A DNA stretch of 64,000 bases from Marinobacter salsuginis (GTDB lineage Bacteria > Pseudomonadota > Gammaproteobacteria > Pseudomonadales > Oleiphilaceae). A program made the position numbers and the translations under genes. Below, piece after piece: positions 7,160-39,634 of the stretch; positions within the stretch are counted from its first letter, which is position 1; the number at the start of each line of letters is the position of its first letter. Under the pieces are notes generated by a model. The model was given only the letters and a program-made list of their open reading frames with translations. It was not told the origin of the DNA and did no database searches. The stretch spans positions 868,001 through 932,000 of the forward strand of contig NZ_BGZH01000001.1 of NCBI RefSeq assembly GCF_009617755.1. The letters are read 5' to 3'.

Positions 7160-7269
7160 GCAGCCAACCGGGGGATTCCTTCCGGGAGACGCCGTGAACC
7201 CATCCATGGGGGCTTGATCGCAGCATCCCTGCTGCTCACACTCCCGGGAGGAATCCCCCGGTCGGCTGC
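7160..7269. repeat. Long palindromic repeat element, copy 1
   Basis: The 29-base outer arms (7160-7188 and 7241-7269) are reverse complements except at two positions. They enclose a core with two small hairpins, CCCATCCATGGG (7198-7209) and GCAGCATCCCTGCTGC (7220-7235), joined by GGCTTGAT. The same core plan (ACGCNGTGAA, hairpin, CGCTTG, hairpin, CACA) recurs in four other elements of this window with different arms. It lies between the convergent alkB and crotonase genes and could stop transcription from both sides. Confidence 0.85.
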
Positions 7270-7340
7270 CCAGATTTCTGATGAATTCGCCAGCTTCTTT
7301 TAGTTCCCGAGAGCAGGTGTTTCCCGAAGAAATTTAGAAT

Positions 7341-8120
7341 TTACTTGCCTTTAAAAACAGCTTCGCGCCGTTCCAGGAAAGACTGGATTCCCTCTTTGAC
7401 GTCCTCACTGGCCATCACCGGCTGCAGATCCGGGAACAAACGCTGCTTCGCAGCCTCCTGCCCTTCGCTGACGGCAATTTTTGACGATTTCAGACTGCCC
7501 TGAACACCGAGAGGGGCGGCCTTGGCAATCTTTTCAGCGATTTCCAACGCAACGTCGAACTGCTCGCCCGGTTCCACCAATTCCTGGATCAACCCCCATT
7601 GATAGGCCTGATCGGCAGTCCACTCGTCGCCAGTCAGCAGGTATCGCTGGGCATTCCCCCAGCCGATTTCCCGCTGCAGGCGGATGGTGGCGCCGCCGCA
7701 GGCGAAGATGCCGCGTTTTACTTCCAGCTGGGCAAAGCGGGTGCCTTTAGCGGCAACGCGCACGTCCGTGTTCAACATCATCTCAACGCCGCAAGTAAAG
7801 CAAATACCCTGGGCAGCAAAGACGACAGGTTTGCTGAGTGCCTCACCGGTGATGTGGAACGGATCAAGTTCACCTTCGCCCGGCTCAATACCTTTGCCGT
7901 TGGCAAAGACACCGGCCCAGTCGTCCAGTTGCAAGCCGCTGGTGAAGTGGTCTCCCTCCGCATACATCAGACCTACCCTTAACTCCGGGTCGTGTTCCAG
8001 CTGGTAATAGGCCGCCGCGATCTGGTGGTACATCTCGCGGTTCATGGCGTTCATTTTTTCAGGGCGATTCAGCCCGATCAGCAAGATGTGATTCTTCTTT
8101 TCAACGTTTACCAAAGCCAT
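7341..8120 (-). CDS. Crotonase-family (enoyl-CoA hydratase/isomerase) protein
   Basis: 259 residues from the ATG at 8120, which shares one base with the stop codon of the upstream acyl-CoA dehydrogenase gene (TGATG), implying translational coupling. Crotonase fold signatures are LNRPEKMNAMNREMY, the oxyanion-hole region FTSGLQLDDWAGVF and GICFTCGVEMMLNTDVRVAA. Family members hydrate or isomerise enoyl-CoA in beta-oxidation. The second catalytic loop has KRGIFACGGATIRLQREIG, where classical hydratases carry catalytic glutamates, so it may be an isomerase or side-chain-specific enzyme. The exact substrate is unknown. The pairing with the dehydrogenase indicates one acyl-CoA oxidation pathway. 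Confidence 0.88.
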   Translation of the reverse strand: MALVNVEKKNHILLIGLNRPEKMNAMNREMYHQIAAAYYQLEHDPELRVGLMYAEGDHFTSGLQLDDWAGVFANGKGIEPGEGELDPFHITGEALSKPVVFAAQGICFTCGVEMMLNTDVRVAAKGTRFAQLEVKRGIFACGGATIRLQREIGWGNAQRYLLTGDEWTADQAYQWGLIQELVEPGEQFDVALEIAEKIAKAAPLGVQGSLKSSKIAVSEGQEAAKQRLFPDLQPVMASEDVKEGIQSFLERREAVFKGK

Positions 8121-9922
8121 CAGAACCACTCCGGCTTCATATTAAGACAGGTGTCGTCCTGATTGCGAAGCAAGACCAGATCCTGAGCCACGGTTGGCAA
8201 CTCCCAGTGGAAGAAATACTGGGCCGCCTGCAGCTTGCCCTGGTAGAAGTTGCGCTCGTCATCTGTGTTGGCGGAGCCCAGGGCGTGGGCTGCTGCGTTG
8301 GCCTGACGTAGCCACATCCAGGCAACGATAATATGCCCGAACAGGTGCAGGTAGCAGGACGCGTTGGCCAGAGTTTTATCGGGGTCGCCTTCCATCAGTG
8401 ACTTACCCAGGCTTTGGGTAACCTTCACCGCCTGCTGCAGGGTTTCACTCAGGGACAAGGCCCACTGCTGGCACCGATCGGTGGTAGCCGCCTGCAGGTC
8501 CACCTGCATTTCCTGCATCAGTAATTGCAGACCATGACTCTGATCCTGCCAGATCTTCCGGCCCAGCAGATCCAGGGCCTGGATGCCGTTGGTGCCCTCA
8601 TGAATCGGGTTCAGTCGGTTATCGCGCCAGCATTGCTCCACCGGATATTCGCGGGTATAGCCCGCACCACCGTAGACCTGGATGGCCAGATCGTTGGCCT
8701 TGGGGCCGTATTCAGACGGCCAGGCTTTGATCACCGGGGTGAGCAGGTCCAGCAGCTTACCGGCTTCGTGGCGTTTCTGTTCGTCCGGGTGGGTGTGCTG
8801 GTCATCCATCAACCGGGCGCCATAGAGACACAGGGCCAGACCACCCTCACTGTAGGCTTTCTGGGCAAGCAGCATGCGCCTTACATCGGCGTGATCAATG
8901 ATCGGAACCTGCGGGCTTTCCGGATTCTTTTCACTGGCCTTGCGGCCCTGAAGACGATCTTTGGCGTATTCCAGGCTGTGCATGTAACCGCGATAACCGA
9001 TTACGGCAGCACCAAAACCAACACCAACCCGCGCTTCGTTCATCATCTGGAACATGTATTTCAGACCCTGATGGGGTTCGCCAACCAGGTAACCGTGACA
9101 CGGGGCGTCGTCACCGAAGCTCAGTGCCGTTGAGGTGGTACCGCGGTAGCCCAGTTTGTGGATCAAACCGGCCAGGCTTACACCGTTGCGCTCGGTGGGG
9201 TTACCTTCGTCATCCACCAGGAACTTGGGCACGATGAACAGGGAGATGCCCTTCACGCCCGCAGGCGCACCTTTGATTTTGGCCAGCACCATGTGAACGA
9301 TGTTGTCGGTGATGGACTGCTCTCCCCCTGAGATGTAGATCTTGGCACCCTTGATCAGATAGTGCCCTTCGTCGGTGGGCGACGCGGATGTCCGGATATC
9401 TGCCAGGGAAGAGCCGGCGTGGGGCTCGGTCAGGGCCATGGTTCCGCTGAACCGGCCACTGAGCATGTTCGGCAAGAAGGTATTTTTCTGCTTTTCGTTG
9501 CCGAAAACTCGGATGAGGTTGGCGGCAGCCGTGGTCAGGAATGGATAGCCAGCGGTGCCGGGGTTGGCGGCGGTGAAGAAGCCGTTGCAGGCGGCCATGA
9601 CGGATTCAGGCAGCTGCATGCCGCCCAGTTCATAATCGTAACGTCCGGCGATGAAGCCAGCCTGAGCGTAGGCGTCGAAGGCTTCTTTTACCTGCGGAAG
9701 CATCTCGACCTGGCCGTTGACGAATTTCGGCTCGTCTTTGTCTGCGGCGCTGTTGTGGGTGGCGAATTTCTCCCGGGCCATTTTGTCGGCGGTTTCGATG
9801 ACGGCATCGAAGGTGTCGCGGTTGTGTTCGCTGAAGCGCTCGCGGGTGGTGAGGTTTTCGGTATCGAGTACTTCGTATAGCTGGAACGCCAGGTCGCGGC
9901 GGTCGATCAGGGTGTCGGTCAT
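8120..9922 (-). CDS. Acyl-CoA dehydrogenase, long (DmdC/AidB-like) type
   Basis: 600 residues, longer than the ~380 of short acyl-CoA dehydrogenases and matching the family with an extra C-terminal domain. The FAD-dependent first step of acyl-CoA beta-oxidation is expected, with electrons passed to ETF. Visible motifs are MALTEPHAGSSLADI (FAD and substrate binding), KIYISGGEQ, LGYRGTTSTALSFGD, ARVGVGFGAAVIGYRGY, QVYGGAGYTREYPVEQ and NPIHEGTNGIQALDL, whose glutamate is the probable catalytic base. It is followed by a coupled crotonase gene. Divergent from it, 337 bp away, is a GlxA-type AraC regulator. Chain-length preference cannot be read. Confidence 0.93.
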   Translation of the reverse strand: MTDTLIDRRDLAFQLYEVLDTENLTTRERFSEHNRDTFDAVIETADKMAREKFATHNSAADKDEPKFVNGQVEMLPQVKEAFDAYAQAGFIAGRYDYELGGMQLPESVMAACNGFFTAANPGTAGYPFLTTAAANLIRVFGNEKQKNTFLPNMLSGRFSGTMALTEPHAGSSLADIRTSASPTDEGHYLIKGAKIYISGGEQSITDNIVHMVLAKIKGAPAGVKGISLFIVPKFLVDDEGNPTERNGVSLAGLIHKLGYRGTTSTALSFGDDAPCHGYLVGEPHQGLKYMFQMMNEARVGVGFGAAVIGYRGYMHSLEYAKDRLQGRKASEKNPESPQVPIIDHADVRRMLLAQKAYSEGGLALCLYGARLMDDQHTHPDEQKRHEAGKLLDLLTPVIKAWPSEYGPKANDLAIQVYGGAGYTREYPVEQCWRDNRLNPIHEGTNGIQALDLLGRKIWQDQSHGLQLLMQEMQVDLQAATTDRCQQWALSLSETLQQAVKVTQSLGKSLMEGDPDKTLANASCYLHLFGHIIVAWMWLRQANAAAHALGSANTDDERNFYQGKLQAAQYFFHWELPTVAQDLVLLRNQDDTCLNMKPEWF

Positions 9923-9986
9923 GCTTGGTCTCCTGTTTGTTGTCGACAGCCTCTCACAACTGGTTTTTTCTGGGAACCGGCGTTTA

Positions 9987-10003
9987 TGACATAATTATGG
10001 TCA
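9987..10003. promoter_or_regulatory. Palindrome in the acyl-CoA dehydrogenase / AraC divergent region
   Basis: A perfect 10-base palindrome CATAATTATG (9990-9999), flanked by TGA on one side and (G)TCA on the other, lies 65 bp upstream of the acyl-CoA dehydrogenase start. It is AT-rich in a GC-rich background and is a candidate operator or core-promoter element. The regulator is not known. Confidence 0.35.
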
Positions 10004-10054
10004 ATATTGCCATCCCATTGCCTCGCAACATTTAACAGACGTTTGGCGACCGGC

Positions 10055-10241
10055 CGCCAACGGGGTATTGCCTCCCGGGACACGCTGTGAATACCCCTGC
10101 GGGGTCCAGCCTGCAATCACAGATTGCAGTCGTTCGGCTGTGGCATGAAACTTCGCTTCATAAACGCTCGGCCTCACCCCTGTACGCTTGACTGCAGCAT
10201 CCATGCTGCAGACAGTCCCGGGAGGCAATACCCCGCTGGCG
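10055..10241. repeat. Long palindromic repeat element, copy 2 (enlarged)
   Basis: 27-base outer arms (10055-10081 and 10215-10241) match as reverse complements at 26 positions. The core starts ACGCTGTGAATACC and ends with TACGCTTGA, CTGCAGCATCCATGCTGCAG and ACAG, as in the other copies. In place of the first small hairpin there is an extra ~75 bases containing further hairpins (TGCAATC-ACA-GATTGCA; ATGAA-ACTTCGC-TTCAT). It fills most of the 337-bp region between the divergent acyl-CoA dehydrogenase and AraC genes and ends 18 bp before the AraC start. I see no gene in this region. Confidence 0.8.
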
Positions 10242-10259
10242 CCCTACTTTGGAGTTTGT

Positions 10260-11255
10260 ATGCGGACCGTTTCTGTCATTGGTTTTGACGGGGCACTTGC
10301 CAGTGCCATTACCGGGATTATTGATCTTTTCCGACTTGCGGGCGTTACCTGGGCGCGGATCAACGATGAAACGCCAGCACCCCAATTCACAACTCGGCTT
10401 CTTACTAAAGATGGCACGCCTTGCCGTTGCATTAACGGGCTGACCATTCAGCCAGACGGAGCCTGGAATGATCTGCTGCCAGGGGGCGACGACAGTGATC
10501 TGGTGGTAATCCCGACAATTGGTGGTCCGATCGATGTTGTGCTGACAGGGAATTCGGAGCTCATAGAGTGGCTTGGCGCCTTTCGGTCGTCAGACGCCGG
10601 GCAGGTCCGGGTGGCCAGTAACTGTACCGGGGCGTTCATGCTGGCCGAGGCGGGGCTGTTGGATGGTCGGCAAGCGACGACACACTGGGGGTTCAGCCAT
10701 CAGTTTCGGCAGCGTTTCCCGGCGGTGAACATGCAGCCGGACAAGCTCGTTACGGTGGACGGCGACGTTGCCTGTGCCGGGGGCGGGATGGCCTGGTGGG
10801 ATCTGGGGATCTATCTGGTGGAAAGGTACGCGGGGGCACAAGTCGCAAGGGAGCTGGCGAAGGCGTTTGTGATTGATGCAGGGCGGACCAGTCAGGCGCC
10901 CTACAGTGCACTACAGGCCCGGCGCTACCATTCCGATGCTGCCATTCTGAAGCTTCAGGACTGGCTGGATAGCCATTACAGTGAACCCGTCACCCTCCAC
11001 CGCATGGCTTCTTTGGGCGGACTCACCGAGCGTTCCCTGATTCGCCGGTTCAAGGCAGCCACCGGCGATACACCCACAGGGTACCTGCAGCTTCTACGGA
11101 TCGAGGTTGCACGTCAGCATTTGGAGAAATCGCGGTCACCGATTGATGAAATCACGCAATTGGTAGGCTATGAGGACGTGAGCTCGTTCACTCGTCTGTT
11201 CCGCAAACACACCGGGCTATCCCCGGGTGCTTACCGGTCCCGCTTTGTCAGGTAA
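10260..11255 (+). CDS. GlxA-family AraC-type transcriptional regulator (DJ-1/PfpI domain)
   Basis: 331 residues from the ATG at 10260 (GGAG seven bases upstream; a longer frame would run into the repeat element). The N-terminal ~200 residues are a DJ-1/PfpI-like amidotransferase fold, with VASNCTGAFMLAEAGLLDG and ATTHWGF as in GlxA proteins. The C-terminal ~100 residues form the AraC double helix-turn-helix, with LHRMASLGGLTERSLIRRF and ITQLVGYEDVSSFTRLFRKH, and end TGLSPGAYRSRF. It probably senses a small metabolite and activates a nearby operon. The divergent acyl-CoA dehydrogenase/crotonase pair is the natural candidate, by position only. Confidence 0.92.
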   Translation: MRTVSVIGFDGALASAITGIIDLFRLAGVTWARINDETPAPQFTTRLLTKDGTPCRCINGLTIQPDGAWNDLLPGGDDSDLVVIPTIGGPIDVVLTGNSELIEWLGAFRSSDAGQVRVASNCTGAFMLAEAGLLDGRQATTHWGFSHQFRQRFPAVNMQPDKLVTVDGDVACAGGGMAWWDLGIYLVERYAGAQVARELAKAFVIDAGRTSQAPYSALQARRYHSDAAILKLQDWLDSHYSEPVTLHRMASLGGLTERSLIRRFKAATGDTPTGYLQLLRIEVARQHLEKSRSPIDEITQLVGYEDVSSFTRLFRKHTGLSPGAYRSRFVR

Positions 11256-11364
11256 TGTTGCCACCCCCCGACTGGCCCGGGTTATGCATCGGTTTTCAGC
11301 GAAGGCCAACATCCGGTCTTGAACGTAAAGAATACCGACAGGTGTCACTTTGGGGAGGCCCGCC

Positions 11365-11529
11365 ATGAACGCACCGATCAGACAAAGCCAGGCAGATATC
11401 TTGAGCAAGCTGTACGACATGAAACGAAAGCAAATCGAGCAGGCGATGCAGCAGGGAAACAGCCTTCGGTGTCAGGTACTTGAAGCAGAAGCCGAAGCAA
11501 TTTCCAATGCACTGAAAGCCGCCCGTTAA
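11365..11529 (+). CDS. 54-residue small protein of unknown function
   Basis: ATG at 11365 is preceded by a strong GGGGAGG site six bases away and ends with TAA at 11529. The protein (starting MNAPIRQSQADILSKLYDMK, ending ISNALKAAR) is almost wholly predicted alpha-helix, rich in Gln, Ala, Lys and Glu, with no membrane segment and one Cys. Codon use resembles neighbouring genes. It lies between the AraC regulator (same strand, 109 bp upstream) and a convergent CorC-like gene 15 bp downstream. A helical-hairpin or regulator-like small protein is possible. No family was recognised. Confidence 0.7.
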   Translation: MNAPIRQSQADILSKLYDMKRKQIEQAMQQGNSLRCQVLEAEAEAISNALKAAR

Positions 11530-11544
11530 ACCTCACATCCCTGT

Positions 11545-14627
<3,083 letters not shown>

Positions 14628-14653
14628 TCATAAAATATTTATCGGGAGTATAC

Positions 14654-14671
14654 ACTTGATCAATGGCAAGT
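14654..14671. promoter_or_regulatory. ACTTG-N8-CAAGT dyad at the fadH promoter
   Basis: Perfect 5-base arms, ACTTG (14654-14658) and CAAGT (14667-14671), lie 36 bp before the fadH start and next to a minus-strand TATACT. The spacing fits a TetR-type operator covering the core promoter. The regulator is unknown. Confidence 0.35.
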
Positions 14672-14706
14672 TGACTTGACCTTCCAGACGGGCCACGTAT
14701 CATCGG

Positions 14707-14718
14707 CAAACAAGTTTG
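14707..14718. promoter_or_regulatory. PsrA-type palindrome upstream of fadH
   Basis: CAAAC-AA-GTTTG is a perfect inverted repeat matching the known PsrA pattern (C/G)AAAC-N2-4-GTTT(G/C). PsrA is a TetR-family fatty-acid sensor that controls beta-oxidation genes in pseudomonads. The site is 88 bp upstream of fadH. Function here is inferred. Confidence 0.5.
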
Positions 14719-14971
14719 ACTGACGGAGCAACCATGACCGCAAGGTCCTTCGGCTGCACAAGAGTTACCCGCCCACCTGTTACCGCTGACATCGCGCGGC
14801 ACCGGGGACGTCTACCGTACTTCCCGGATCCGCCTCGTCTCAGCTGATCCACGCCATCCCCTGTGCCGTAATGGCATCTTTGCCCAATGTGCAGGGTGGC
14901 CGGCCTGAGACTAGACTCTGGCAAACATGCCTTCAATACTCACGTAAAAGAAAACCAATAACGAGGTTGCG

Positions 14972-23063: not shown

Positions 23064-23067
23064 ATTT

Positions 23068-30337: not shown

Positions 30338-30553
30338 TTAGCTGTCAGCGATACGAAACCCTACTTTCATAACCACCTGATAATGGCCGACCTTGCCATC
30401 CACGATATGGCCGCGGGTTTCGGTTACCTCAAACCACTCCATGTTGCGAACACTTTTGCCGCACTCCTCCAGTGCGTTCTCGATGGCGTCTTCAATGCTC
30501 TTCTTGGAAGACCCGACAATTTCCACTTTTTTGTAGACATGATGGTCAGACAT
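30338..30553 (-). CDS. Dodecin (flavin-storage protein)
   Basis: 71 residues, the normal dodecin length, with a GGAGGG-type site before the start. It reads HVYKKVEIVGSSKKSIEDAI, then NMEWFEVTETRGHI with the stacking tryptophan, then VGHYQVVMKVGFRI with the conserved glutamine. Dodecins assemble into hollow 12-mers that bind flavins or CoA and protect the cell from free flavin. It is divergent from the DUF3750 gene and converges on the helical protein gene with a 13-bp gap. Confidence 0.95.
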   Translation of the reverse strand: MSDHHVYKKVEIVGSSKKSIEDAIENALEECGKSVRNMEWFEVTETRGHIVDGKVGHYQVVMKVGFRIADS

Positions 30554-30746
30554 GGAACCCTCCTTAAAATTTCAGCTTGTAGTTTTCAGCCTAGAAGACA
30601 AGCCTGATGCCAGCAAACTACAGCCCGGCACAGTCCTCATCCGCAACAAGACGAAGGACGTATTTGTTCACTACAATGAATAACGCCATCCGGAACTTTC
30701 TGAGCCCCGACGAGTCCCGGATACCCTCACGTTCTGGATTGGATTC

Positions 30747-31517
30747 ATGAAACGATTTCTGAAATACACCAGCTGGTTTGTCGGTGCGGTGCTCCTGCTG
30801 CTTTCCGGCCCAATCCTGCTGGCCACCAGCGGCAGCTTGCAGGGAGCGGAGAGCTGGCAGACAGCCACCCGGGAAAGCGCCCGCATTGCGCCCCTGCCCG
30901 AACAGGCCGACGAGGCCATCGTCCAGGTCTACGGGGCTCGGGCCTGGAGCTGGCGAGGCTACTTTGCAGTCCATACCTGGATAGCCACCAAGGAAAAAGG
31001 CGCCAGCCACTACCGGGTTCATGAAGTTACAGGTTGGCGCAGCTACGTGGTCGATTCCCGGCCGGGTGAACCGGACAGGCACTGGTATGGTGCGAAACCG
31101 GAACTCTATGCTGATATCCGCGGAGAAGAGGCAGAAAAGCTTATTCCCGACATCTACCGGGCAGTGGAATCCTACCCCTACCCGACCGAATACGAAGCCT
31201 GGCCGGGCCCCAACAGCAATACCTTCGTGGCCTGGGTGATACGGGAGGTTCCTGGACTTGATGTCGCTTTGCCCAACCACGCTATTGGCAAGGACTACCT
31301 GGGCGATCGGGTGTTCGCAGAGGTTCCGGGTGGCGCTGGTTACCAGGTTTCGCTGGGCGGGTATTTTGGCGTGTTGGCAGGTGTCCGCGAAGGGCTGGAA
31401 CTGAACCTTTTGGGTCTTTCTTTCGGGATTAACCCGATGGCACTCGGAGTCAAGCTACCCGGCATTGGGGAACTAGCACTCAGAAATACCAACCCAATGC
31501 CAGAAGTCAGTCCCTAG
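30747..31517 (+). CDS. DUF3750 protein, secreted or membrane-anchored
   Basis: 256 residues with an N-terminal signal anchor (LKYTSWFVGAVLLLLSGPIL). Family segments are VQVYGARAWSWRGYFAVHTW, YRVHEVTGWRSY, YPTEYEAWPGPNSNTFVAWV and GKDYLGDRVF, with conserved His, Cys-free NSNTF and Trp residues characteristic of DUF3750. Its pattern (HTW, NSNTF) resembles papain-like or NlpC/P60-like folds, but this is uncertain. Location is probably periplasmic. A palindromic repeat element starts seven bases after the stop codon. Confidence 0.88.
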   Translation: MKRFLKYTSWFVGAVLLLLSGPILLATSGSLQGAESWQTATRESARIAPLPEQADEAIVQVYGARAWSWRGYFAVHTWIATKEKGASHYRVHEVTGWRSYVVDSRPGEPDRHWYGAKPELYADIRGEEAEKLIPDIYRAVESYPYPTEYEAWPGPNSNTFVAWVIREVPGLDVALPNHAIGKDYLGDRVFAEVPGGAGYQVSLGGYFGVLAGVREGLELNLLGLSFGINPMALGVKLPGIGELALRNTNPMPEVSP

Positions 31518-31523
31518 GCACGG

Positions 31524-31632
31524 GAAACAGGCGGGCAGGGGTTCCCAAAAATGTGCGGAGCCAGGGATGGCGGAGCCAAGCGTACAGGGAAGTATTTACA
31601 GCGTTTTTTGGGAACCCCTGCCCGCCTGTTTC
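31524..31632. repeat. Long palindromic repeat element, copy 3
   Basis: 28-base arms (31524-31551 and 31605-31632) are perfect reverse complements. The core, read on the minus strand, is ACGCTGTAAATAC, TTCCCTG, TACGCTTGG, then CTCCGCCATCCCTGGCTCCG and CACA. It lies between the convergent DUF3750 and EF-hand-like genes with only 6 and 18 bases to their stop codons. The T-run in the right arm (31604-31609) and the A-run in the left arm could make it a two-way terminator. Confidence 0.88.
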
Positions 31633-31650
31633 ATACTCCAGATCCGGAAG

Positions 31651-32964
31651 TCATAGGCTGGCAAACTCCAGATACCGACTCGCAGCCTGCTTCTTCTCAT
31701 CCTGGCTGTTCAGCATTTCCAGCCGCATTTTATCGATGAGCTTCAGGTAGTCATCAAGCGGTGATTCGGGCTTGCCCGCGTCTTTGGACTCTTCGATAAA
31801 CGCTTTTTGCTTTTCGCGGATTTCGTTCAGCTTCTCCAGTGCCGAGCGGATAGCCTCCACCCGAGCCTCAACCAGGCCGTTACCGCCGCGATCTGGTGAG
31901 CCGCGGTCAGAGCTCAGTACGGTCTCCGCGGCCGGCGCGTCGGCGGTATTCTGCTCTGCAAGATCGATTTCTTCCAGGGTGCGGACTTCGCCGTCGGTCG
32001 TCAGGTAAATACCGGAACCCTTGATCTGGCCCAGGGGCACGCCCTGACTGTTCGCCAGAGTGAATCGGTCGTCCACGCTATCCACGTAGAGGGCCTGAAC
32101 GCCTACCTCCTCCAGGGACCTCAGAGCCTCTGAACCATCGGCGGTCTGAACCCAAACGGACAGCGATTTGAAGATCTCATCATTGGCATCAATCCAGCGG
32201 TTGCCATCGTCATCGAATCGAGCCAGCTCACTGAAGCCGGAGCCGCTCTGGGGGCCAAACAATTCAGTGCCATCGTCCACCTTGCCGTTGCCGTTGCGAT
32301 CCAGCACCAGATAGCCGCTGCCACTGCCCAGGGTGGCGAACTGGCCGGTTTCTCCGTCGCCGTTCAGATCGAATTCGAACAGCGTGTCGGTCAGGCGCGC
32401 GGTGGCATTGCCAAAGTTAATCACCAGAGGATCGGTGAGCGGCCGTTCCTGGATCTGGACCAGCTCGGAATACTCGTAAGTGCGAGACTGCGACTGCCGC
32501 AGGGAGAGCGTGAAATCAATGGTTTCGCCATTCTCCAGGCTGATGGTGCCGGTAGAGGCAAAGCTTCTGGATTCGCTCTCCGAGTAGAACATGTAGCGCC
32601 CGGCGGAAACCGAAAGGCTGCCACGACCCTCGACGCCAGCATCACCGCCCAGAGCCGCACGGCTTACGCTCAGCGCCTGCTGGCCCATCAGGAACAGCTC
32701 TGAGGTTTTCTCGGCCAGCTTTGCACTGGTGAAAACGCTCTGCTGACCGTCACCCGTCACGGTGCTGCTTCCACTGAACGCGAGCTGCTCCTGGCTGCTG
32801 TAACGGTAGGCAGCCTGGCGCATGAGCGTCAGTTCAGAGCCCACCGCATTTTCATTAGCCCGGGGCGCTGGCGCTTGCCGGTTGATGCGCAGCTGGGTGC
32901 TGTCGAAAGCCGATACCTGGCGGGAACTGTCCTGGAAAAGCGAAATCTGACTGGAGGAAATCAT
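31651..32964 (-). CDS. Large protein with EF-hand-like calcium-binding loops, unknown function
   Basis: 437 residues without a signal peptide. The N-terminal half is Ser/Gln-rich with beta character (FTLSLRQSQSRTYEYSELVQ). The middle contains three DxDxDG-type loops: FDLNGDGETGQFA, LDRNGNGKVDDGTELFG and FDDDGNRWIDANDEIF, the last two spaced like dockerin or EF-hand repeats. The C-terminus is a charged helix (LEKLNEIREKQKAFIEESKD). Similar proteins occur in pseudomonads and marinobacters as uncharacterised proteins; this recall is not checked. Possible calcium-dependent or secreted role, unproven. Confidence 0.8.
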   Translation of the reverse strand: MISSSQISLFQDSSRQVSAFDSTQLRINRQAPAPRANENAVGSELTLMRQAAYRYSSQEQLAFSGSSTVTGDGQQSVFTSAKLAEKTSELFLMGQQALSVSRAALGGDAGVEGRGSLSVSAGRYMFYSESESRSFASTGTISLENGETIDFTLSLRQSQSRTYEYSELVQIQERPLTDPLVINFGNATARLTDTLFEFDLNGDGETGQFATLGSGSGYLVLDRNGNGKVDDGTELFGPQSGSGFSELARFDDDGNRWIDANDEIFKSLSVWVQTADGSEALRSLEEVGVQALYVDSVDDRFTLANSQGVPLGQIKGSGIYLTTDGEVRTLEEIDLAEQNTADAPAAETVLSSDRGSPDRGGNGLVEARVEAIRSALEKLNEIREKQKAFIEESKDAGKPESPLDDYLKLIDKMRLEMLNSQDEKKQAASRYLEFASL

Positions 32965-33052
32965 GGCTTCGGGTACCTGTATTCACTACACAGGTGTATC
33001 GGCCGCGAGCGTCGATACTTGAGCAGTTTTTAATCACTTCAGATTCGGGAAG

Positions 33053-33364
33053 TTACGCCAGATAGCGGACGAGTCCAGCAGCCGCAATCCCCGCTGCAAT
33101 GGCTGGCAGGGGTTTGCGAAGAGCCAGCATGATCACCGCTGTGACCACCAGAGCAGCGACTGCCCCGAGGTCACCACTGAACGCCATGGGAACGATAATG
33201 GCGATCAGCACGGAGCTGGCCATGGTGTTGATGAAGCTCTCGATGCGAGGGTTGATCTTTACAAAGGACATGATAAATACGCCGCCGAAACGGGTCGCCA
33301 GCGTGACCACTGTCATGATCGCGATCAGCAGGAGTATACCGGCCGTGGTGGTTTCAATGGCCAT
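33053..33364 (-). CDS. azlD: AzlD-family branched-chain amino acid exporter subunit
   Basis: 103 residues from ATG 33364, 11 bases inside the end of azlC, so the two are translationally coupled. Four hydrophobic helices (ILLLIAIMTVVTLATRFGGV, FINTMASSVLIAIIVPMAF, AVAALVVTAVIMLALR, LPAIAAGIAAAGLVRYL) match AzlD. AzlC and AzlD together form an exporter of branched-chain amino acids or their analogues. Confidence 0.9.
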   Translation of the reverse strand: MAIETTTAGILLLIAIMTVVTLATRFGGVFIMSFVKINPRIESFINTMASSVLIAIIVPMAFSGDLGAVAALVVTAVIMLALRKPLPAIAAGIAAAGLVRYLA

Positions 33365-34109
33365 CACTCGCCTCCTCAATATCCGGCTGTCGCTGGGTGT
33401 CTGCAGGTTTTTGCTCCAACCAGAAAAACCCGATCGCGCCCCCTGCAAGCGCACCCACCACCACATGGGTATTGGGCGGCAGCCACTTCCAGGCAGCCAG
33501 TGATGCCAGCGCGGCCACTGTCCAGGCCACGAGCACCCTGGGTGATTTCTTGCCGCCCAGGGCCATGGCCAGCAGGAAGCAGCCCAGCACCATATCCAGC
33601 CCAAGGGATTTGGGATTCTGCAACAGGCCGCCGAAATAAACGCCAAGGCCCGTTCCGATGATCCAGGCCAGCCACAAAGCCAGGCCGCCTCCCAGAATGA
33701 CTTCCAGATTACGCCGACCGCTCTGATACTCCTGGGCAGAAACCGCCCAGTTGGCGTCTGTCAGCAGCAGCAAAAGGCCGTAGCGCTTGCCAGGCGATAC
33801 ATCTCGGAGCATCGGGTACAGGGAAGCGCCCATCAGCAGGTGGCGGGAGTTAATGGCGAAGACCACGGCAATCATTGGGAGGACAGAGACTTCAGCGCCC
33901 CACATATCGACGGCGGCAAACTGGGAGGCCCCGGCAAAGACCGTGGCACTCATCAGCACGGCCTGGAGTGGTTCAAGACCTTTCTGGGTAGCGGCCAACC
34001 CAAAGGCAGCGCCGAACGCCACCACAAACAAGGAGATGGGAAGTAGCCGGAAAAACTCCACCCGTACCCGGGCCGGCTGAAGCTGATAAGAATAGGAAGC
34101 GACAGACAT
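33354..34109 (-). CDS. azlC: AzlC-family branched-chain amino acid permease
   Basis: 251 residues. AzlC signatures are GLEPLQAVLMSATVFAGASQ, FAAVDMW, VVFAINSRHLLMGASLYP and LLLTDANWAVSAQEY. It is the larger half of the AzlCD exporter and lies in the inner membrane. No Shine-Dalgarno site precedes the ATG; instead a perfect 9-bp hairpin ends two bases before it. It is divergent from the leucine dehydrogenase gene, which supports a branched-chain amino acid role. Confidence 0.93.
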   Translation of the reverse strand: MSVASYSYQLQPARVRVEFFRLLPISLFVVAFGAAFGLAATQKGLEPLQAVLMSATVFAGASQFAAVDMWGAEVSVLPMIAVVFAINSRHLLMGASLYPMLRDVSPGKRYGLLLLLTDANWAVSAQEYQSGRRNLEVILGGGLALWLAWIIGTGLGVYFGGLLQNPKSLGLDMVLGCFLLAMALGGKKSPRVLVAWTVAALASLAAWKWLPPNTHVVVGALAGGAIGFFWLEQKPADTQRQPDIEEASDGH

Positions 34110-34111
34110 CA

Positions 34112-34134
34112 GGGGAAACTAGGCCAGTTTCCCC
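34112..34134 (-). promoter_or_regulatory. Hairpin abutting the azlC start codon
   Basis: GGGGAAACT (34112-34120) and AGTTTCCCC (34126-34134) form a perfect 9-bp stem with a 5-base loop. On the azlC mRNA it ends two bases before the ATG, where a ribosome site would be. It could hide the initiation region or act as an operator dyad. Confidence 0.5.
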
Positions 34135-34299
34135 GAAACGCGTATAGGTAGTTCCCGCAGAAACCACCAGATCTGCGACTAATGGACCAGATCCGAGCAG
34201 AAAGCACGAATAGATAAACCCGTGATTACGCCGAAACTTTCCAGGAAAGCCTGTAAACCGAAGAACAACCACCGCACCGAATAGTTCACTTTTGCATGT

Positions 34300-34315
34300 T
34301 GACGTTAACGTTAAA
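34300..34315. promoter_or_regulatory. LiuR-like palindrome at the leucine dehydrogenase promoter
   Basis: TTGACGTTAACGTTAA has a perfect 10-base palindromic centre ACGTTAACGT (34303-34312). It resembles sites of LiuR, a MerR-family regulator of branched-chain amino acid degradation (recalled pattern, TTNACGTNNACGTNAA). Its left part can serve as a -35 TTGACG with TAGTTT 17 bp further on. Confidence 0.45.
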
Positions 34316-34477
34316 TGCGGCTAGTTTGTTTTTCGTCCAGCCCCAAAAGGGCAGTTTCAATGGGTACCCCCCAAGCGAAAAGCGGACACCTGAAATCGAA
34401 ACGCCGGCCACAAGCCGGTCGACAAGAACAAGATACCCGCTCATGCCGAGATCCGGCCGGTGGGAGAGGATTTCACA

Positions 34478-35575
34478 ATGCTATTCAGCCATCCCGAGTT
34501 CGATAACCACGAACATCTGTCCTTTTTCTGCGATCCCGAAAGCGGCCTGAAGGCCATCGTTGCTATCCATAACACTTCCCGCGGCCCCGCACTGGGTGGC
34601 TGCCGAATGTTTCCCTATGCCTCCGATGAAGAGGCGGTGCGCGACGTATTGCGGCTTTCACGGGGCATGACCTACAAATCGGCGCTCGCCAACCTGGATC
34701 TGGGTGGCGGCAAGTCGGTGATTATTGGTGACCCGCGCAAACAGAAAACCGAAGCGCTGATGGAGGCCATGGGCCGTCATCTGGAAAGTCTGGGCGGGCA
34801 GTACATTGCGGCAGAGGATTCCGGCACCAGCGTACCGGACCTCAAGATCATGGGCCGACACACCGGCCACATTGCCGGCATCGCCTCGCGGACCGGCTTC
34901 GACGGCAATCCCAGTAACGGCGACCCATCACCGGCAACTGCTTACGGGACGTTTATTGGCCTGAAGGCAGCGGTGAAACACAAACTCGGACGGGATAATC
35001 TCAACGGCTTGAAGGTGGCCATTCAGGGCATCGGCAATGTTGGTTTCCGGCTGGCCAGACACCTCAAGGACGCTGGCGCTGATCTCTGGGTGTATGACAT
35101 CCACGAGGACAACATGCAGCGGGCAGTGGATCAGCTGGGAGCCAGACCGGCCGCCGCCCAGGACATTCTCTCCCTGCCGGTAGACGTGGTTGCGCCCTGC
35201 GCCATGGGCGCGGTACTGAACGATCACAGCATTCCCCAGCTGCAGGCCCGCATTGTCGCCGGCGCCGCCAATAACCTGCTGGAACACCCGGAGCATGATG
35301 CCATGCTGCGGGACCGGGGCATCCTCTATGCGCCGGATTTTGCCATCAACGCCGGTGGCATCATCGATGTGTTCTACGAGCGCACTGGCGCCACTCCGGA
35401 AACCGTTCGGGCCCACGTCGAGACCATCGGCGACACCCTGACCGAAATCTTCAACCGTTCCGACCGCTCAGGGCGCCCCACCGGGGAGATCGCCAACGAA
35501 CTGGCGGAGGAACGGTTCAAAAAGCACACCGCCGGAGCCAGCCTGGCACCCGAGCGGTTGGCTCGCACCGGCTGA
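34478..35575 (+). CDS. Leucine dehydrogenase-type (Glu/Leu/Phe/Val) dehydrogenase
   Basis: 365 residues from ATG 34478 (GAGAGGA upstream; a GTG six codons earlier is weaker). It deaminates leucine, valine or isoleucine to 2-oxo acids with NAD+. Catalytic segments are [22 protein letters not shown] with the lysine, and [11 protein letters not shown] with the aspartate. The Rossmann motif is [27 protein letters not shown] and [15 protein letters not shown] are typical of leucine dehydrogenase. It is flanked by azlCD and an NSS transporter, forming a branched-chain amino acid locus. Confidence 0.93.
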
Positions 35576-35597
35576 GCTGACACCGGCGCACCCCTCA

Positions 35598-35628
35598 GGA
35601 AGCTGCAGGCAGCTGCAGCTTCCCTCTT
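35598..35628 (+). terminator. Terminator after leucine dehydrogenase
   Basis: GGAAGCTGCA (35598-35607) pairs perfectly with TGCAGCTTCC (35614-35623), with loop GGCAGC, and is followed by CTCTT. The T-run is short, so its strength is uncertain. Confidence 0.65.
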
Positions 35629-35666
35629 AAACCCTGATACAAAAACAAATACTCCGGGAGATAGTT

Positions 35667-37079
35667 ATGTCCGTCACTTCTTCAGATTCCGCCGCCTATT
35701 CGGGGGCGCTTGAAGGTTCAAACGCCCAACGCGGGCTCTGGTCATCACGTCTGGCCTTTATTCTTGCCGCTACCGGCTCCGCCGTGGGCCTGGGCAATAT
35801 CTGGAAATTTCCCTACGTGACCGGCGAAAACGGGGGCGGCGCCTTCGTGCTGGTTTACCTACTGTGCATCGCAGTTGTGGGTATTCCCATCATGATGGCG
35901 GAAGTCATGATCGGTCGTCACGGCGGTCGAAGCCCCGTCAAGAGCCTGAGCCTGATTGCCGAACGGGACGGCCTCAACCCGGCCTGGAAGCTGGTCGGTG
36001 CCATCGGTATTCTGGCGGGTTTCCTTATTCTCTCATTCTATTCGGTGATTGGCGGCTGGGCCATTTCCTACGTGGGCACAACCGCCAGCGGCCAGCTTAC
36101 CGGCCAGACTGCTGACGCCGTCGGCGCTATCTTCTCGGGTCTGCTGAGTGATCCCACCACCCTGCTCGCCTGGCATACATTGTTCATGGCTCTGGTCATG
36201 GTTGTGGTTGTGAGGGGCGTTCGCTCGGGTCTTGAGCGGGCGGTCAGCATCCTGATGCCAGCCCTGTTCGTGCTCCTGCTCATTGTGGTGGGGTATGCAA
36301 TGACCACCGGGCACTTTGGCCAGGCCGCGGCGTTTCTGTTTCAGCCGGATTTCTCCAAGCTCACAACGTCCGGGATCCTGGTAGCTCTGGGCCATGCGTT
36401 CTTCACCCTGAGCCTGGGTATGGCAGTAATGATGGCCTACGGCTCCTACCTGCCCAAGAATATTTCCATCGCCAAGACCTCCATGACCGTGTCGGTCATC
36501 GACACCGGTGTGGCACTGTTGGCCGGTCTGGCCATCTTCCCGATCGTGTTTGCCAACGGCCTTGAGCCGGGTGCCGGCCCGGGCCTGATCTTCCAGACCC
36601 TGCCGCTGGCTTTCGGCCAGATGCCCATGGGCTCCCTGTTCGGCACCCTGTTCTTTGTCCTGCTGATCTTCGCCGCCTGGACATCCGGGATCTCGCTGCT
36701 GTAGCCTATCGTGGAGTGGCTGGAGGAGCGTAAAGGCATGAACCGCACCGTCAGCACGCTGGGCGCCGGTTTTGTCTGCTGGGGACTGGGCATTGCCTCG
36801 ATTCTGTCCCTGAACCTCTGGTCTGACTTCGCTCCGCTTGGCTTTGTGCCCATGCTGGAAGGCAAGACCATTTTCGACCTGCTGGACTTCTTCACCGCCA
36901 ACATCATGCTGCCGCTGGGTGGTTTGCTTGTGGCCCTGTTCGCAGGCTGGGTGATGTCGCGCCAGGCCATGGAGAAGGAACTGGCACTGTCTCCAGGCAT
37001 GTTCAATCTCTGGCTGATCACCGTACGCTTTGTGACGCCGGTAGCGGTGGCCGTGGTATTTATCTACAACCTGATGTAA
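35667..37079 (+). pseudogene. NSS-family sodium-dependent transporter interrupted by in-frame TAG
   Basis: The frame codes for a normal ~470-residue SNF/NSS symporter, but codon 346 (36702-36704) is TAG. Before it the protein has the TM1 signature AVGLGNIWKFPYVTGENGGG and ends SGISLL. After it the same frame resumes PIVEWLEERKGMNRTVSTLG and runs through the last three helices to 37079. Relatives have Glu at this place (LLEP), so a single GAG-to-TAG change explains it. No other defect is seen, so the loss is recent, or it is a sequencing error, or the codon is read through. The first 345 residues alone would lack the C-terminal helices. Confidence 0.85.
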
Positions 37080-37085
37080 TAACCG

Positions 37086-37988
37086 CTACAACTGATCGAG
37101 GGAGGCCTTCAGGGTCTCCCCGATCCTTGCATTCAACTTCAGATGCACCAGATCCTCGGCCCGTGTCCGCCCAAGATTCAGTGTGGCAATGGGCTTGTTC
37201 CACTCATTGGCGTACCGGCAGAAACGGAAGCCGGAATACACCATCAACGACGAACCGATCACCAGAAGGCCATCACTGGCTTTCAGCGTATCCAGGGCCG
37301 AGTACACCCGGTCTTTCGGAACGAAGTCACCGAAGAACACCACATCCGGCTTAAGAATCCCCTCGCATTTCGGACAGTCCGCCAGCCGGAAATCCTCGAA
37401 ATCGACATCCAGATCGGCATCACCGTCCGGCGCTGTCTCGGCCGTGTATTTCTGGAAGCCCGGGTTCAGATCGGCGCAGCGATCGTGCACCTCATCCCGC
37501 GGGCAACGGTAGCCGCAACTCATGCACACAACCTCATCGGCCCGCCCGTGCAAATCCGTTACCGCCCGGGTACCCGCCTTCTGGTGAAGCCGGTCGACAT
37601 TCTGGGTAACCACCAGGCTGCTGTGGTTCAGCAGTTCGAGATCGGAGATGTAATGATGAGAGGGATTGGGCCTGGCGTTGCGCATCACCGGCCAGCCAAT
37701 CAGACTTCGGCCCCAGTAGCGCTGGCGCGTGTAAAAGTCTTCCATGAACGCCTTGTGCTGAACCGGCTGCTTGCGCTTCCAGGCGCCATCGCCATCCCGG
37801 TAATCCGGGATGCCCGAATCGGTACTGACCCCGGCACCGGTCAGAATCAGCAAGCGGGGGTAGCGATGGATAAACTCCGCCAGCAATGCCCCGGCCTCCT
37901 CCGGCTTATGCAAAACCGGCGGCTGCTCCGGCTCGGGCAGACGCTGGCTGGAACTGAAAGGTCGGCTACGGTGCGTGGTCAAAGACAT
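37086..37988 (-). CDS. SIR2-family NAD-dependent protein deacylase
   Basis: 300 residues. Sirtuin motifs are complete: LTGAGVSTDSGIPDYR (NAD pocket), VTQNVDRLHQKAG (catalytic QNVD), the active histidine in DLHGR, the zinc cysteines C-x2-C (VCMSCGYRC) and C-x2-C (DCPKCEG), VVFFGDFVP, and VIGSSLMVYSGF. The long Zn-module insert and the SIPDYR type suggest the class II/SIRT4-like group rather than CobB. It removes acyl groups from protein lysines using NAD+. It overlaps nothing and converges on the broken NSS gene with a 6-bp gap. Confidence 0.93.
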   Translation of the reverse strand: MSLTTHRSRPFSSSQRLPEPEQPPVLHKPEEAGALLAEFIHRYPRLLILTGAGVSTDSGIPDYRDGDGAWKRKQPVQHKAFMEDFYTRQRYWGRSLIGWPVMRNARPNPSHHYISDLELLNHSSLVVTQNVDRLHQKAGTRAVTDLHGRADEVVCMSCGYRCPRDEVHDRCADLNPGFQKYTAETAPDGDADLDVDFEDFRLADCPKCEGILKPDVVFFGDFVPKDRVYSALDTLKASDGLLVIGSSLMVYSGFRFCRYANEWNKPIATLNLGRTRAEDLVHLKLNARIGETLKASLDQL

Positions 37989-38002
37989 ACAGACTCCGGT
38001 TT

Positions 38003-38734
38003 TCAGCCCGGCTTGCGAGCCACATACACGGTGTTAAACGATTCCCTGTTCTGAAATGGATTGAAAAAGGATACGACATGGCAAGCCACATCGGTGAACA
38101 CTTCGTTGAGAACGGCCATGAACTCGTCATCCTCACCCTCGTTCGACCACATGGCAAACACGCCCCGGGGCTTCAGTTGCCGGGCCATCAGGCGCAAATT
38201 GTTGGCGGTGTAAAAGCTGGCGCTTGAATCGTGAAGCAGCGCCCGGGGTGAATGGTCGATGTCCAGGAGGATGGCATCAAATTGTTTGCCGGGGTTCTCA
38301 GGATCGAAACCACCAACCTCTGGATCGGTAACCGCAAGGTCGAAGAAGCTGCCATGAACGTAGCGGTTCCTCGGATCGGCATTCAGGTTTTTACCCAGGG
38401 GGACCAGTTCCTGCTGATGCCAGCCGATGACTGGCTCCAGGTACTCAACTACGAGCAACTCGGCAACCCGCTCATGCCTGAGCGCGGCCACGGCGGTGTA
38501 ACCCAGGCCCAGGCCACCGACCACCACATTCAGGTCGTCACCCTCGGTTTCGCCAAGTCCGATATCCGAGAGGGCTACTTCAGCATCCACGAACATGCTG
38601 GACATCAGGAATTCCTCGCCCAGCTTCACCTCGTAGATATCCCGGTCACCAATAGCAGGAATCCGGCGCCGGCGAAGCGTGATCTCACCGATCACCGAAG
38701 GCTGGCTGTCAATTTGCTCGAAAAGCAGTCCCAT
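38003..38734 (-). CDS. Spermidine synthase-like SAM-dependent protein
   Basis: 243 residues. It has the Rossmann core of spermidine synthases and methyltransferases: VVVGGLGLGYTAVAALRH, VVEYLEPVIGWHQ and DAILLDIDHSPRALLH. Full aminopropyltransferase active-site motifs (such as the conserved GGGDG and the second catalytic Asp-rich loop) are altered, so it may be a methyltransferase or an inactive relative. It is 15 bp from the sirtuin start on the same strand, and both may share a transcript. The substrate is unknown. Confidence 0.82.
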   Translation of the reverse strand: MGLLFEQIDSQPSVIGEITLRRRRIPAIGDRDIYEVKLGEEFLMSSMFVDAEVALSDIGLGETEGDDLNVVVGGLGLGYTAVAALRHERVAELLVVEYLEPVIGWHQQELVPLGKNLNADPRNRYVHGSFFDLAVTDPEVGGFDPENPGKQFDAILLDIDHSPRALLHDSSASFYTANNLRLMARQLKPRGVFAMWSNEGEDDEFMAVLNEVFTDVACHVVSFFNPFQNRESFNTVYVARKPG

Positions 38735-38820
38735 TTGCTCTGACTCTTCTGGTTGATCTGGTTTGCAACTATGCCGTTATATCCGAGTTAACCGCCCGGG
38801 CCTTAGGATCCGTGCATTCG

Positions 38821-38926
38821 CCGGTGGGCAGGGCTTTCCAAAACACGCTCCTTGCGGCACATCCATGTGACGCTTGGGCTCCGCCATCCATGGCTCCGCA
38901 CAGTTTTGGAAAGCCCTGCCCACCGG
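38821..38926. repeat. Long palindromic repeat element, copy 4
   Basis: 24-base arms (38821-38844 and 38903-38926) are perfect reverse complements. The core reads CACGCTCCTTGCGGC, hairpin ACATCCATGT, GACGCTTGG, hairpin GGCTCCGCCATCCATGGCTC and CGCACAG. It starts 87 bp upstream of the spermidine-synthase-like gene and ends nine bases past the DUF1415 stop codon. Copy 5, with nearly the same core in reverse orientation, lies on the other side of the DUF1415 gene. Confidence 0.88.
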
Positions 38927-38935
38927 CTCCTGATC

Positions 38936-39499
38936 CTACTCCCCTGTTTCCGGCGAGTTCTCCACGCAGCTAACGAGGATTTTCCGCATCCTCTCCGCTC
39001 CCAGTTTCTCCATCAACTCGATGTTTCTTTGGGGTATAGCATCCACATCAGGATAACTATTAATCGCCGCTTCCAGGCTGGCTTCCCTTAGCAGATGCAA
39101 CATCGGAAACGGTGAACGATTGGTGTAGTTCTCCGCCGCATCGGGCTCTGTGCCCTCAAACTGGTAGTCTGGATGGAAACTGGCAATCTGGTACACGCCT
39201 TCCATATCCAGGTACGACAACAAACCATCGGCGGCATCGAGAAACTCATTGTAGGGCCCGAAGTCCTGCAATACACCCGGGTGAATCAACAGTGTGGTTT
39301 CAATCTCAGGCTCCTCTTCCAAGCGCTGAAGCTCCGAGTGCAGGGCCTGTAACAGCTCGTCTTCCGTTTCGGCTTCCGACACTACAAACCGAACCCGGTT
39401 CCGGACCAGTTCCCGCTTGGCGAACGGGCACAGGTTGTAGCCGACGACAACGTCTTCGACCCATTTACGGCTTGAAGCGATAATTTCGGTCTCGCCCAT
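38936..39499 (-). CDS. DUF1415 protein
   Basis: 187 residues. DUF1415 features are WVEDVVVGYNLCPFAKRELV, TTLLIHPGVLQDFGPYNEFLD, DMEGVYQIASFHPDYQFEGT and NYTNRSPFPMLHLLREASLE. The CPFA and HPDYQF motifs are strongly conserved in the family, whose function is unknown. It is bracketed by two inverted palindromic repeats (38821-38926 and 39544-39634), each within about 45 bp of the gene. Confidence 0.93.
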   Translation of the reverse strand: MGETEIIASSRKWVEDVVVGYNLCPFAKRELVRNRVRFVVSEAETEDELLQALHSELQRLEEEPEIETTLLIHPGVLQDFGPYNEFLDAADGLLSYLDMEGVYQIASFHPDYQFEGTEPDAAENYTNRSPFPMLHLLREASLEAAINSYPDVDAIPQRNIELMEKLGAERMRKILVSCVENSPETGE

Positions 39500-39543
39500 A
39501 TTTTTTCCTTTGTTAGTGAAGGCCGCTCAGAGGCACGCGCGGG

Positions 39544-39634
39544 CGGGTGGGTAGGCCTTTCCAAAACTGTGCGGAGCCCAAGCGCCCCAGGGATGGGCCG
39601 CAAGGAGCGTGTTTTGGAAAGGCCTACCCACCCG
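39544..39634. repeat. Long palindromic repeat element, copy 5 (shortest)
   Basis: 24-base arms (39544-39567 and 39611-39634) are perfect reverse complements. Read on the minus strand the core is CACGCTCCTTGCGGC, hairpin CCATCCCTGG, GGCGCTTGGG, CTCCGCACAG. It equals copy 4 except that the second hairpin is missing and the first hairpin has a compensated sequence. It lies between ybiT (stop 33 bp away) and the DUF1415 start. Confidence 0.88.

What the first reader, a model, noticed from the sequence alone, without database searches (positions are those of the whole stretch)
7160..39634. A family of five long palindromic intergenic elements with conserved core and self-complementary but diverging arms
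Five intergenic stretches (7160-7269, 10055-10241, 31524-31632, 38821-38926, 39544-39634) share one plan. Outer arms of 24-29 bp pair within a copy (perfectly in three) but differ between copies. The core, read in one direction, is ACGCT, a first small hairpin of NNCATCC(A/C)TGNN type, CGCTTG, a second such hairpin and CACAG. Hairpin bases change in compensated fashion (ACATCCATGT versus CCATCCCTGG). This points to selection on structure, as a cruciform DNA or a multi-branched RNA. It is larger and more ordered than common REP units. Such repeats may be known from related marine genomes; I cannot check.
Basis: partly seen in the sequence, partly recalled or inferred. Interest (0 to 1): 0.8.

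Follow-up and report, generated by a model that had tools for sequence, protein, structure and literature searches.

The report
Scattered palindromic repeats with lopsided surroundings
A hairpin-shaped piece of DNA is scattered many times between the genes of this bacterium and its relatives; its arms change together and its middle can lie either way round, and in some genomes the DNA around it carries a one-sided mark that suggests one strand there is often left bare.

Summary
The five elements are real and belong to a large family. A covariance model built here finds 89 copies in fetched stretches of this genome, copies in all 24 sampled congeners (3 to at least 103) and in 69 of 194 genomes of the order, own included. 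The closest described motif is Rfam TwoAYGGAY (RF01731), typed as cis-regulatory RNA. Copies of this genome stay below its cut-off (41.8 against 43 bits), but 3 of 12 loci elsewhere in the class that pass it also match our model. A dispersed DNA palindrome fits better than a cis RNA: copies are intergenic, ignore gene direction and often form outward-facing pairs. At orthologous sites both arms change together (437 positions against 39 one-sided) and the core can be inverted, as template switching predicts. No Y1 (RAYT-type) transposase is found in this genome. Unexpectedly, many unpaired copies sit in a 1.5-2 kb domain whose third codon positions are C- and A-rich on one strand (39 of 73 at z<-3). 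This recurs in G165, weakly in G010, not in G201 or G202. Its cause is unproven.

The parts
7160..7269 (-). Copy 1 (R1 match 7163-7266, minus; the strand given is the one with GGA in the loops), between the convergent genes 5842-7110 (+, fatty acid desaturase) and 7341-8129 (-, enoyl-CoA hydratase)
10052..10244 (-). Copy 2, long variant, about 85 extra bases with further small hairpins in one core hairpin; between divergent genes, ends just upstream of the AraC-type regulator at 10260; locus without a copy in G009 and G023
   Evidence: not listed by R1
31524..31632 (+). Copy 3 (R1 match 31526-31630), between convergent genes 30747-31517 (DUF3750) and 31651-32964 (no Pfam match); the copy at this locus lies the other way round in G009 and G018
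38819..38928 (-). Copy 4, the copy that matches Rfam TwoAYGGAY at 37 bits; absent in G009 and G023
39539..39639 (+). Copy 5, one core hairpin lost; orthologs in other congeners have different but paired arms; in G023 and G016 only part of one arm seems left (my reading of the sequences)
9020..9920 (.). Left flank of copy 2: third codon positions G-rich on the + strand (GC skew 0.37, 0.30 above a rough expectation), the direction expected from the family's strand asymmetry; similar in G009 and G023, which lack the copy
10260..11160 (.). Right flank of copy 2, same direction (GC skew 0.14, 0.22 above the rough expectation)

Best explanation
The five stretches are copies of a dispersed, non-coding palindromic DNA repeat family, a GC-rich branch next to the Rfam TwoAYGGAY motif. 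Shown: high copy number, very uneven between species; intergenic placement without regard to gene direction; frequent outward-facing pairs; concerted difference of the two arms at orthologous sites; copies that lie either way round or are missing at one locus. Inferred: when one strand is single, the element folds; DNA synthesis across it switches template between the arms, which keeps the arms perfect copies of each other while they drift and now and then inverts the core. Inferred and weaker: a strand-specific process at the element (a nick or gap in the strand carrying GGA) leaves the opposite strand bare for about 1 kb on either side in some genomes, which would explain the lopsided third codon positions. 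The spreading enzyme is unknown; it need not be a RAYT, since this genome has no Y1-type transposase hit.
For: 89 copies at E<=1e-7 in 60 fetched regions of this genome; 28 of 38 genomes at E<=1e-5, own included, congeners 3 to >=103; 69 of 194 genomes of the order. Placement of 93 of 94 hits: 0 inside genes; relative to the GGA strand convergent 27, divergent 19, tandem sense 21, tandem antisense 26 (without the weak hits 23, 19, 20, 25). Gaps >=80 bp without a copy in the same regions: convergent 11, divergent 50, tandem 86, so copies favour 3' ends. Close pairs face outward: 10 of 10 in G000, 14 of 14 in the loci, 6 of 6 in G010. Arms. Either way round: copy 3 locus in G009 and G018, copy 1 locus in G019. 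PMC8604942 (abstract) describes arm homogenization and spacer inversion as results of template switching; PMC8794818 (abstract and start of the introduction) its role in making and keeping hairpins. Asymmetry.
Against: No transposition event with a target duplication was seen; at copy 2 the copy-free loci (G009, G023) are more likely losses, since G018, G019 and G001 carry a copy there. The opposite orientations could also come from separate insertions. Pairing arms have lasted across species at some loci, which selection could also explain. In G165 only 3 of 5 close pairs seen face outward, in G201 2 of 3. Asymmetry not seen in G201 (16 copies) or G202 (5), weak in G010 (21), absent at paired copies, still present at the copy 2 locus in two genomes that lack the copy, and absent at the copy 3 locus whichever way the copy lies. 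No replichore bias in the 4 genomes tested. The z-scores are over-dispersed: windows far from copies have mean -1.05 and sd 2.0. RNA folding energies of the two strands are nearly equal for three copies, so they do not single out the GGA strand.
Confidence: 0.5

Rival explanations
1. A CsrA/RsmA-binding RNA: each copy, when transcribed on the GGA strand, presents two ANGGA loops and titrates CsrA or tags the transcript.
For: Two CANGGANG loops in 86 of 89 own copies, ACANGGANGT in 82 of 89, which resembles the CsrA SELEX consensus (recalled). CsrA family hit in 38 of 38 genomes. PMC4333381 (passage) predicted CsrA binding for TwoAYGGAY. G-U exceeds A-C in the arms, 68 against 5 and 52 against 8; G-A and A-G cells in hairpin 1.
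Against: 26 of 93 copies are antisense to both neighbours and cores lie either way round at one locus. CsrA is present in genomes without the element too. It does not explain the asymmetry in flanking genes.
Confidence: 0.17
2. A bidirectional terminator or 3'-end mRNA stabiliser kept by selection at gene ends.
For: Enriched between convergent genes and scarce between divergent ones relative to gaps without copies; very stable folds on both strands. TTTT within 14 bases of the arm on one strand in 8 of 89 copies, and in 59 of 89 the right arm itself opens with a T-run.
Against: No clear T-run after the arm: 0 of 89 with >=6 T in the next 10 bases on either strand. 19 of 93 copies lie between divergent genes. 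Copy number 3 to >=103 within a genus.
Confidence: 0.13
3. A REP/REPIN-type element moved by a RAYT transposase.
For: Intergenic, many copies, inverted outward pairs like REP dimers.
Against: PF01797 has 0 hits in G000 and in several high-copy congeners (G005, G008, G009, G019, G021 to G024). Units are 90-190 bp, not the 20-40 bp given for REPs in PMC3733652 (abstract in the listing, passages).
Confidence: 0.05
4. The strand asymmetry is not caused by the element: copies settle, or are kept, in an orientation that matches pre-existing lopsided DNA. (This rival concerns the asymmetry only and can be true beside the others.)
For: Asymmetry is also seen at the copy 2 locus in G009 and G023, which lack the copy; no raised substitution rate on the G018 branch near two sites (76 of 376 against 165 of 674).
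Against: Lopsided windows (|z|>5) are 34% of 73 near unpaired copies but 4% of 68 far from copies, and the profile has a dip locked to the 150-200 bp 5' of the element.
Confidence: 0.3

Closest known systems
TwoAYGGAY RNA (Rfam RF01731, clan CL00106)
   Same: Outer stem enclosing two hairpins with CAUGGAUG-type loops; G-A pairs in one stem. Genomes of the class with matches over its cut-off also hold many (5 with 9 matches, the scoring cap), and the 3 close pairs among the listed over-cut-off rows face outward. 3 of 12 such loci match our model.
   Different: 0 of 27 hits in this genome and none of the 20 loci scanned reach the cut-off (best 41.8 and 42.0 against 43). Strict AYGGAY in both loops in only 32 of 89 copies. 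Rfam types it Cis-reg; the placement here does not support that for these copies.
REP / REPIN / BIME elements
   Same: Many intergenic palindromes, inverted dimers, uneven numbers between species.
   Different: Several times longer, two-hairpin core, copy-specific arms, no Y1 transposase hit in this genome.
CsrB/RsmZ-type CsrA-sequestering RNAs
   Same: Repeated ANGGA hairpin loops.
   Different: Not a discrete sRNA gene; about 90 dispersed copies in either orientation. RF00166 gives no hit over its cut-off in 38 genomes, nor in 14 controls, so that search says little.
Quasipalindrome template switching (PMC8604942 abstract; PMC8794818 abstract and start of introduction)
   Same: Arm homogenization and spacer inversion.
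   Different: Described there as a mutation mechanism, not as an element family; no flanking strand asymmetry is mentioned in the parts I read.

Membership tests
TwoAYGGAY (RF01731) | Covariance score at or above the gathering cut-off (43 bits) | tested here: not met
   Own genome best 41.8 bits, 0 of 27 over the cut-off; window copy 37 bits; best of 20 loci of relatives 42.0
TwoAYGGAY (RF01731) | Two hairpins with AYGGAY loops inside an outer stem | tested here: inconclusive
   Two CANGGANG loops in 86 of 89 copies, strict AYGGAY in both in 32 of 89; outer stem 98.2% paired in 35 copies
TwoAYGGAY (RF01731) | Tandem G-A pairs in one stem (stated in PMC4333381) | tested here: met
   57 G-A and 50 A-G cells in hairpin 1 of 89 copies; the tandem arrangement is read from the alignment and holds for some subfamilies only
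TwoAYGGAY (RF01731) | Reciprocal match of our model to accepted members | tested here: inconclusive
   3 of 12 loci over the RF01731 cut-off match R1 at E<=1e-10 (L326, L329, L330); one more at E 0.07; the rest are not listed at E<=0.1
TwoAYGGAY (RF01731) | Acts as RNA | not testable with these tools
   No expression data held
REP/REPIN | Associated RAYT (Y1) transposase | tested here: not met
   PF01797: 0 matches in G000
REP/REPIN | Inverted dimers | tested here: met
   10 of 10 close pairs outward in G000; most copies are single
REP/REPIN | 20-40 bp units | tested here: not met
   Units 90-190 bp
REP/REPIN | GTAG or CGTC tag beside the stem | not tested
   Not examined systematically
CsrA-sequestering RNA | ANGGA loops | tested here: met
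   86 of 89 copies with two
CsrA-sequestering RNA | CsrA binding in the cell | not testable with these tools
   Needs CsrA co-purification
Intrinsic terminator | T-run directly after the stem | tested here: not met
   0 of 89 with >=6 T in 10 bases on either strand; TTTT within 14 bases in 0 and 8 of 89

The most novel reading that the evidence does not exclude
TwoAYGGAY-like elements are not RNAs but strand-specific DNA elements. A host or mobile enzyme recognises the folded GGA strand and opens a gap of roughly 1-2 kb around it again and again, so that the opposite strand is exposed. This leaves a lasting strand-asymmetric footprint in neighbouring genes, rewrites the arms by template switching and flips the core. 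It would be a class of ssDNA-processing repeat without the known Y1 transposase.
Probability: 0.25. Interest if true: 0.85.

Novelty: new variant of a known kind. Interest (0 to 1): 0.62.

Why it matters
TwoAYGGAY has stood since 2010 as a likely structured RNA of unknown function. Its relatives here behave as dispersed DNA palindromes, which changes what should be tested. Coordinated arm changes, usually read as proof of RNA structure, may here be the product of template switching. And an element-centred strand asymmetry of synonymous sites, if confirmed, is a mark of recurrent single-strandedness that could be used to find other such sites in genomes.

Tried and rejected
Replication-strand orientation: a correlation of element strand with regional GC skew (p about 1e-4 for unpaired copies) suggested replichore bias; tests against dnaA-anchored halves of G165, G201, G202 and contig C1 of G000 were all negative (the listed hits only, 105 of 142, 29 of 33 and 16 of 23, with the terminus assumed opposite or varied), and the signal turned out to be local. 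Gene direction as its cause: regression slope 0.014. RAYT phyletic link: none. Canonical RsmZ as replaced sponge: uninformative. A check of Rfam clan CL00106 through an E. coli csrB stretch gave no match, so I say nothing about what else is in that clan. The miRNA families I take for chance matches of long palindromes. Substitution types: on the G018 branch near two sites C>T 26 against G>A 11 and A>G 13 against T>C 4 on the CATCC strand (far genes 36:39 and 20:10), but the other five branches lean to G>A there and source-base composition was not corrected; one gene (10259-11255) was entered one base out of frame and gave 0 columns. Near/far base frequencies (mainly C up, G down) do not fit a pure deamination spectrum. 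Loci with copies either way round gave no clear sign test.

Rows dropped: of 102 matches, eight opposite-strand repeats of the same places were left out, giving 94; seven of the 94 had weak scores there (E 6e-4 to 0.4), two of which score 70-91 bits when rescored (L099, L102). One of the 94 (C2:383422) had no fetched region and is missing. In one search four of 39 copies were left out of the model (w10055, L044, w39544, w7160). In one search only ortholog pairs whose core starts alike were compared, and copies without a clear arm were skipped. Copy counts from the genome search are lower bounds (at most 150, 103, 20 or 9 candidates scored per genome). A first loop count of 88 of 89 included a match outside the loops; 86 of 89 replaces it.

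Full report
OBSERVATION. The five palindromes exist at the given coordinates and are the best long inverted repeats of the window. Read on the opposite strand, the loops are CATGGATG-like; I call that strand the GGA strand and the other the CATCC strand.

FAMILY. An exact core pattern gave 21 places in the genome and 0 for the reversed control. An Rfam search gave one family for the window at E<=1, TwoAYGGAY, 37 bits at 38813-38934, and 27 places in the genome, none over the cut-off of 43. I aligned 35 copies. The 26-pair outer stem pairs in 98.2% of cells and 25 of its 26 pairs show changes on both sides; the whole structure far exceeds shuffles and slid controls. The model R1 made from it finds 87 places at E<1e-9 in the genome and 89 at E<=1e-7 in 60 fetched regions. 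It does not list the long copy at 10055.

DISTRIBUTION. 28 of 38 genomes, own included, have copies at E<=1e-5: all 24 congeners, from 3 (G012, G020) to at least 103 (G024), plus G027, G029 and G034 of other families. In the order 69 of 194 genomes and 39 of 96 genera have them, own included. The copies of other families that I looked at keep the same core, with CGAGCG-, CGAGCT- or CAAGCG-like letters between the hairpins.

LINK TO TwoAYGGAY. In 274 genomes of the class, 13 have RF01731 matches over the cut-off; five genomes show nine matches, the most that were scored. Of 12 loci over the cut-off, three match R1 at E<=1e-10 and show the same plan. So the two intergrade, but our copies fail the formal cut-off and I do not file them as members. 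Literature seen: Weinberg 2010 lists TwoAYGGAY as probably RNA and probably not cis-regulatory (PMC2864571, one passage); PMC4333381 (one passage) proposes CsrA binding; PMC12199142 (passages) calls it relatively unexplored; PMC11701678 (one passage) reports an updated structure. PMC5864184 (passages) describes CsrA-sequestering sRNAs in Alteromonas, not this element.

PLACEMENT. Of 93 placed hits none lies inside a gene by my simple gene caller. Relative to the GGA strand: convergent 27, divergent 19, tandem sense 21, tandem antisense 26. Gaps of at least 80 bp without a copy in the same regions: convergent 11, divergent 50, tandem 86. So copies favour 3' ends but ignore direction. No clear T-run follows the arms.

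PAIRS. Close pairs (<260 bp) in this genome are 10 of 10 with GGA strands pointing outward. The same holds for 14 of 14 close pairs in the loci and 6 of 6 in G010. In G201 it is 2 of 3 and in G202 3 of 3; one pair of each is also among the 14. In G165 it is 3 of 5. Among the over-cut-off TwoAYGGAY rows three close pairs are listed, all outward; of two among weaker rows one is outward and one head-to-tail.

ARMS AND ORIENTATION. At five orthologous sites copies in different species have different but paired arms. Over 62 ortholog pairs and 22 inner arm positions each, 437 positions differ in both arms, 39 in one, 888 in none (the pairs are not independent, and pairs with unlike core starts were left out). 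G000 and G023 differ at the copy 1 locus by 9 two-sided and 1 one-sided positions, with flanking genes 90% and 87% identical. The copy at the copy 3 locus lies the other way round in G009 and G018, that at the copy 1 locus in G019. G009 and G023 lack copies 2 and 4; in G023 and G016 the site of copy 5 seems to keep part of one arm. A long hairpin module recurs at different loci in G000, G001, G002 and G013. Arm homogenization and spacer inversion are what PMC8604942 (abstract) ascribes to template switching. In the arms G-U exceeds A-C on the GGA strand, 68 against 5 of 2314 cells here and 52 against 8 of 2235 in 86 distinct copies of other genomes, mostly at the outer end (inner 20 pairs: 21 against 5 and 18 against 6).

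STRAND ASYMMETRY. Around 73 unpaired copies oriented by the GGA strand, GC skew falls to -0.107 (z -5.7) close to the element on both sides and AT skew rises, fading by about -1.5 kb and +1 kb. In genes the effect lies in third codon positions and appears for both gene directions. On average A+C at third positions is 0.586 near unpaired copies against 0.533 far away; at the strongest loci it reaches 70-80%, with a dip to baseline in the 150-200 bp directly 5'. 39 of 73 unpaired copies have z<-3 and 2 of 73 z>+3; 20 paired copies average -0.2. These z are over-dispersed: 68 windows far from copies have mean -1.05, sd 2.0; |z|>5 occurs in 34% of near and 4% of far windows. Mean z is negative in all core subfamilies and gene contexts. 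The effect recurs in G165 of another family (26 copies; 0-300 bp: GC -0.289, z -4.0; AT +0.357, z 4.1), partly in five congeners (18 copies), weakly in G010 (21), and not in G201 (16) or G202 (5). Among the window's own copies, copy 2 shows it clearly, and there it is also seen in G009 and G023, which lack the copy; copy 3 shows none. The effect was found after the fact, while testing another idea; the distance profile, the codon-position split and G165 are the checks.

MECHANISM. Best reading: a dispersed palindromic DNA repeat, kept palindromic by template switching. The asymmetry suggests that the CATCC strand is often single in the neighbourhood, for instance through a strand-specific nick or gap in the GGA strand; exposure of the same strand on both sides is unlike resection from a double-strand break (general knowledge). 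This last step is inference. The CsrA sponge idea remains open for transcripts that happen to carry the GGA strand.

NOVELTY. My searches (most papers seen as listings) showed no description of such a flanking asymmetry or of TwoAYGGAY as a dispersed DNA repeat. The library holds open-licence papers only and supplements could not be read, so this is weak evidence of absence.

Noticed in passing
L083 (G000:C1:585507-585671), L088 (G000:C1:761213-761380), G000:C1:436935-437143, L136 (G000:C4:52643-53219): A second repeated hairpin, about GTCGGATTACG...CTAATCCGACCTACG, lies between neighbouring copies of several outward pairs.
   Followed up: no
window 10095-10180; also the copy 4 site of G001 and G013 and the copy 5 site of G002 and G013: A module of about 85-100 bp with small hairpins sits in the loop of one core hairpin at unrelated loci in several species, as if passed between copies.
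   Followed up: partly
site of copy 5 in G003, G007, G017, G024: In four congeners the site is about 1 kb long and looks like an open frame resembling an alpha/beta hydrolase (my reading, no family search), with no element that I could see.
   Followed up: no
flanks of own-genome copies: Beyond the arms many copies share a C-rich stretch with CCCCAA or CACCCAA and, at +16 to +20, AGGCT; before the 5' arm TCTGA or TTTGA at about -8. The conserved unit may be longer than the palindrome.
   Followed up: partly
G018, loci L222-L223 (sites of copies 1 and 2): Third codon positions there are extremely lopsided (GC skew up to 0.55) compared with five congeners at the same genes.
   Followed up: partly
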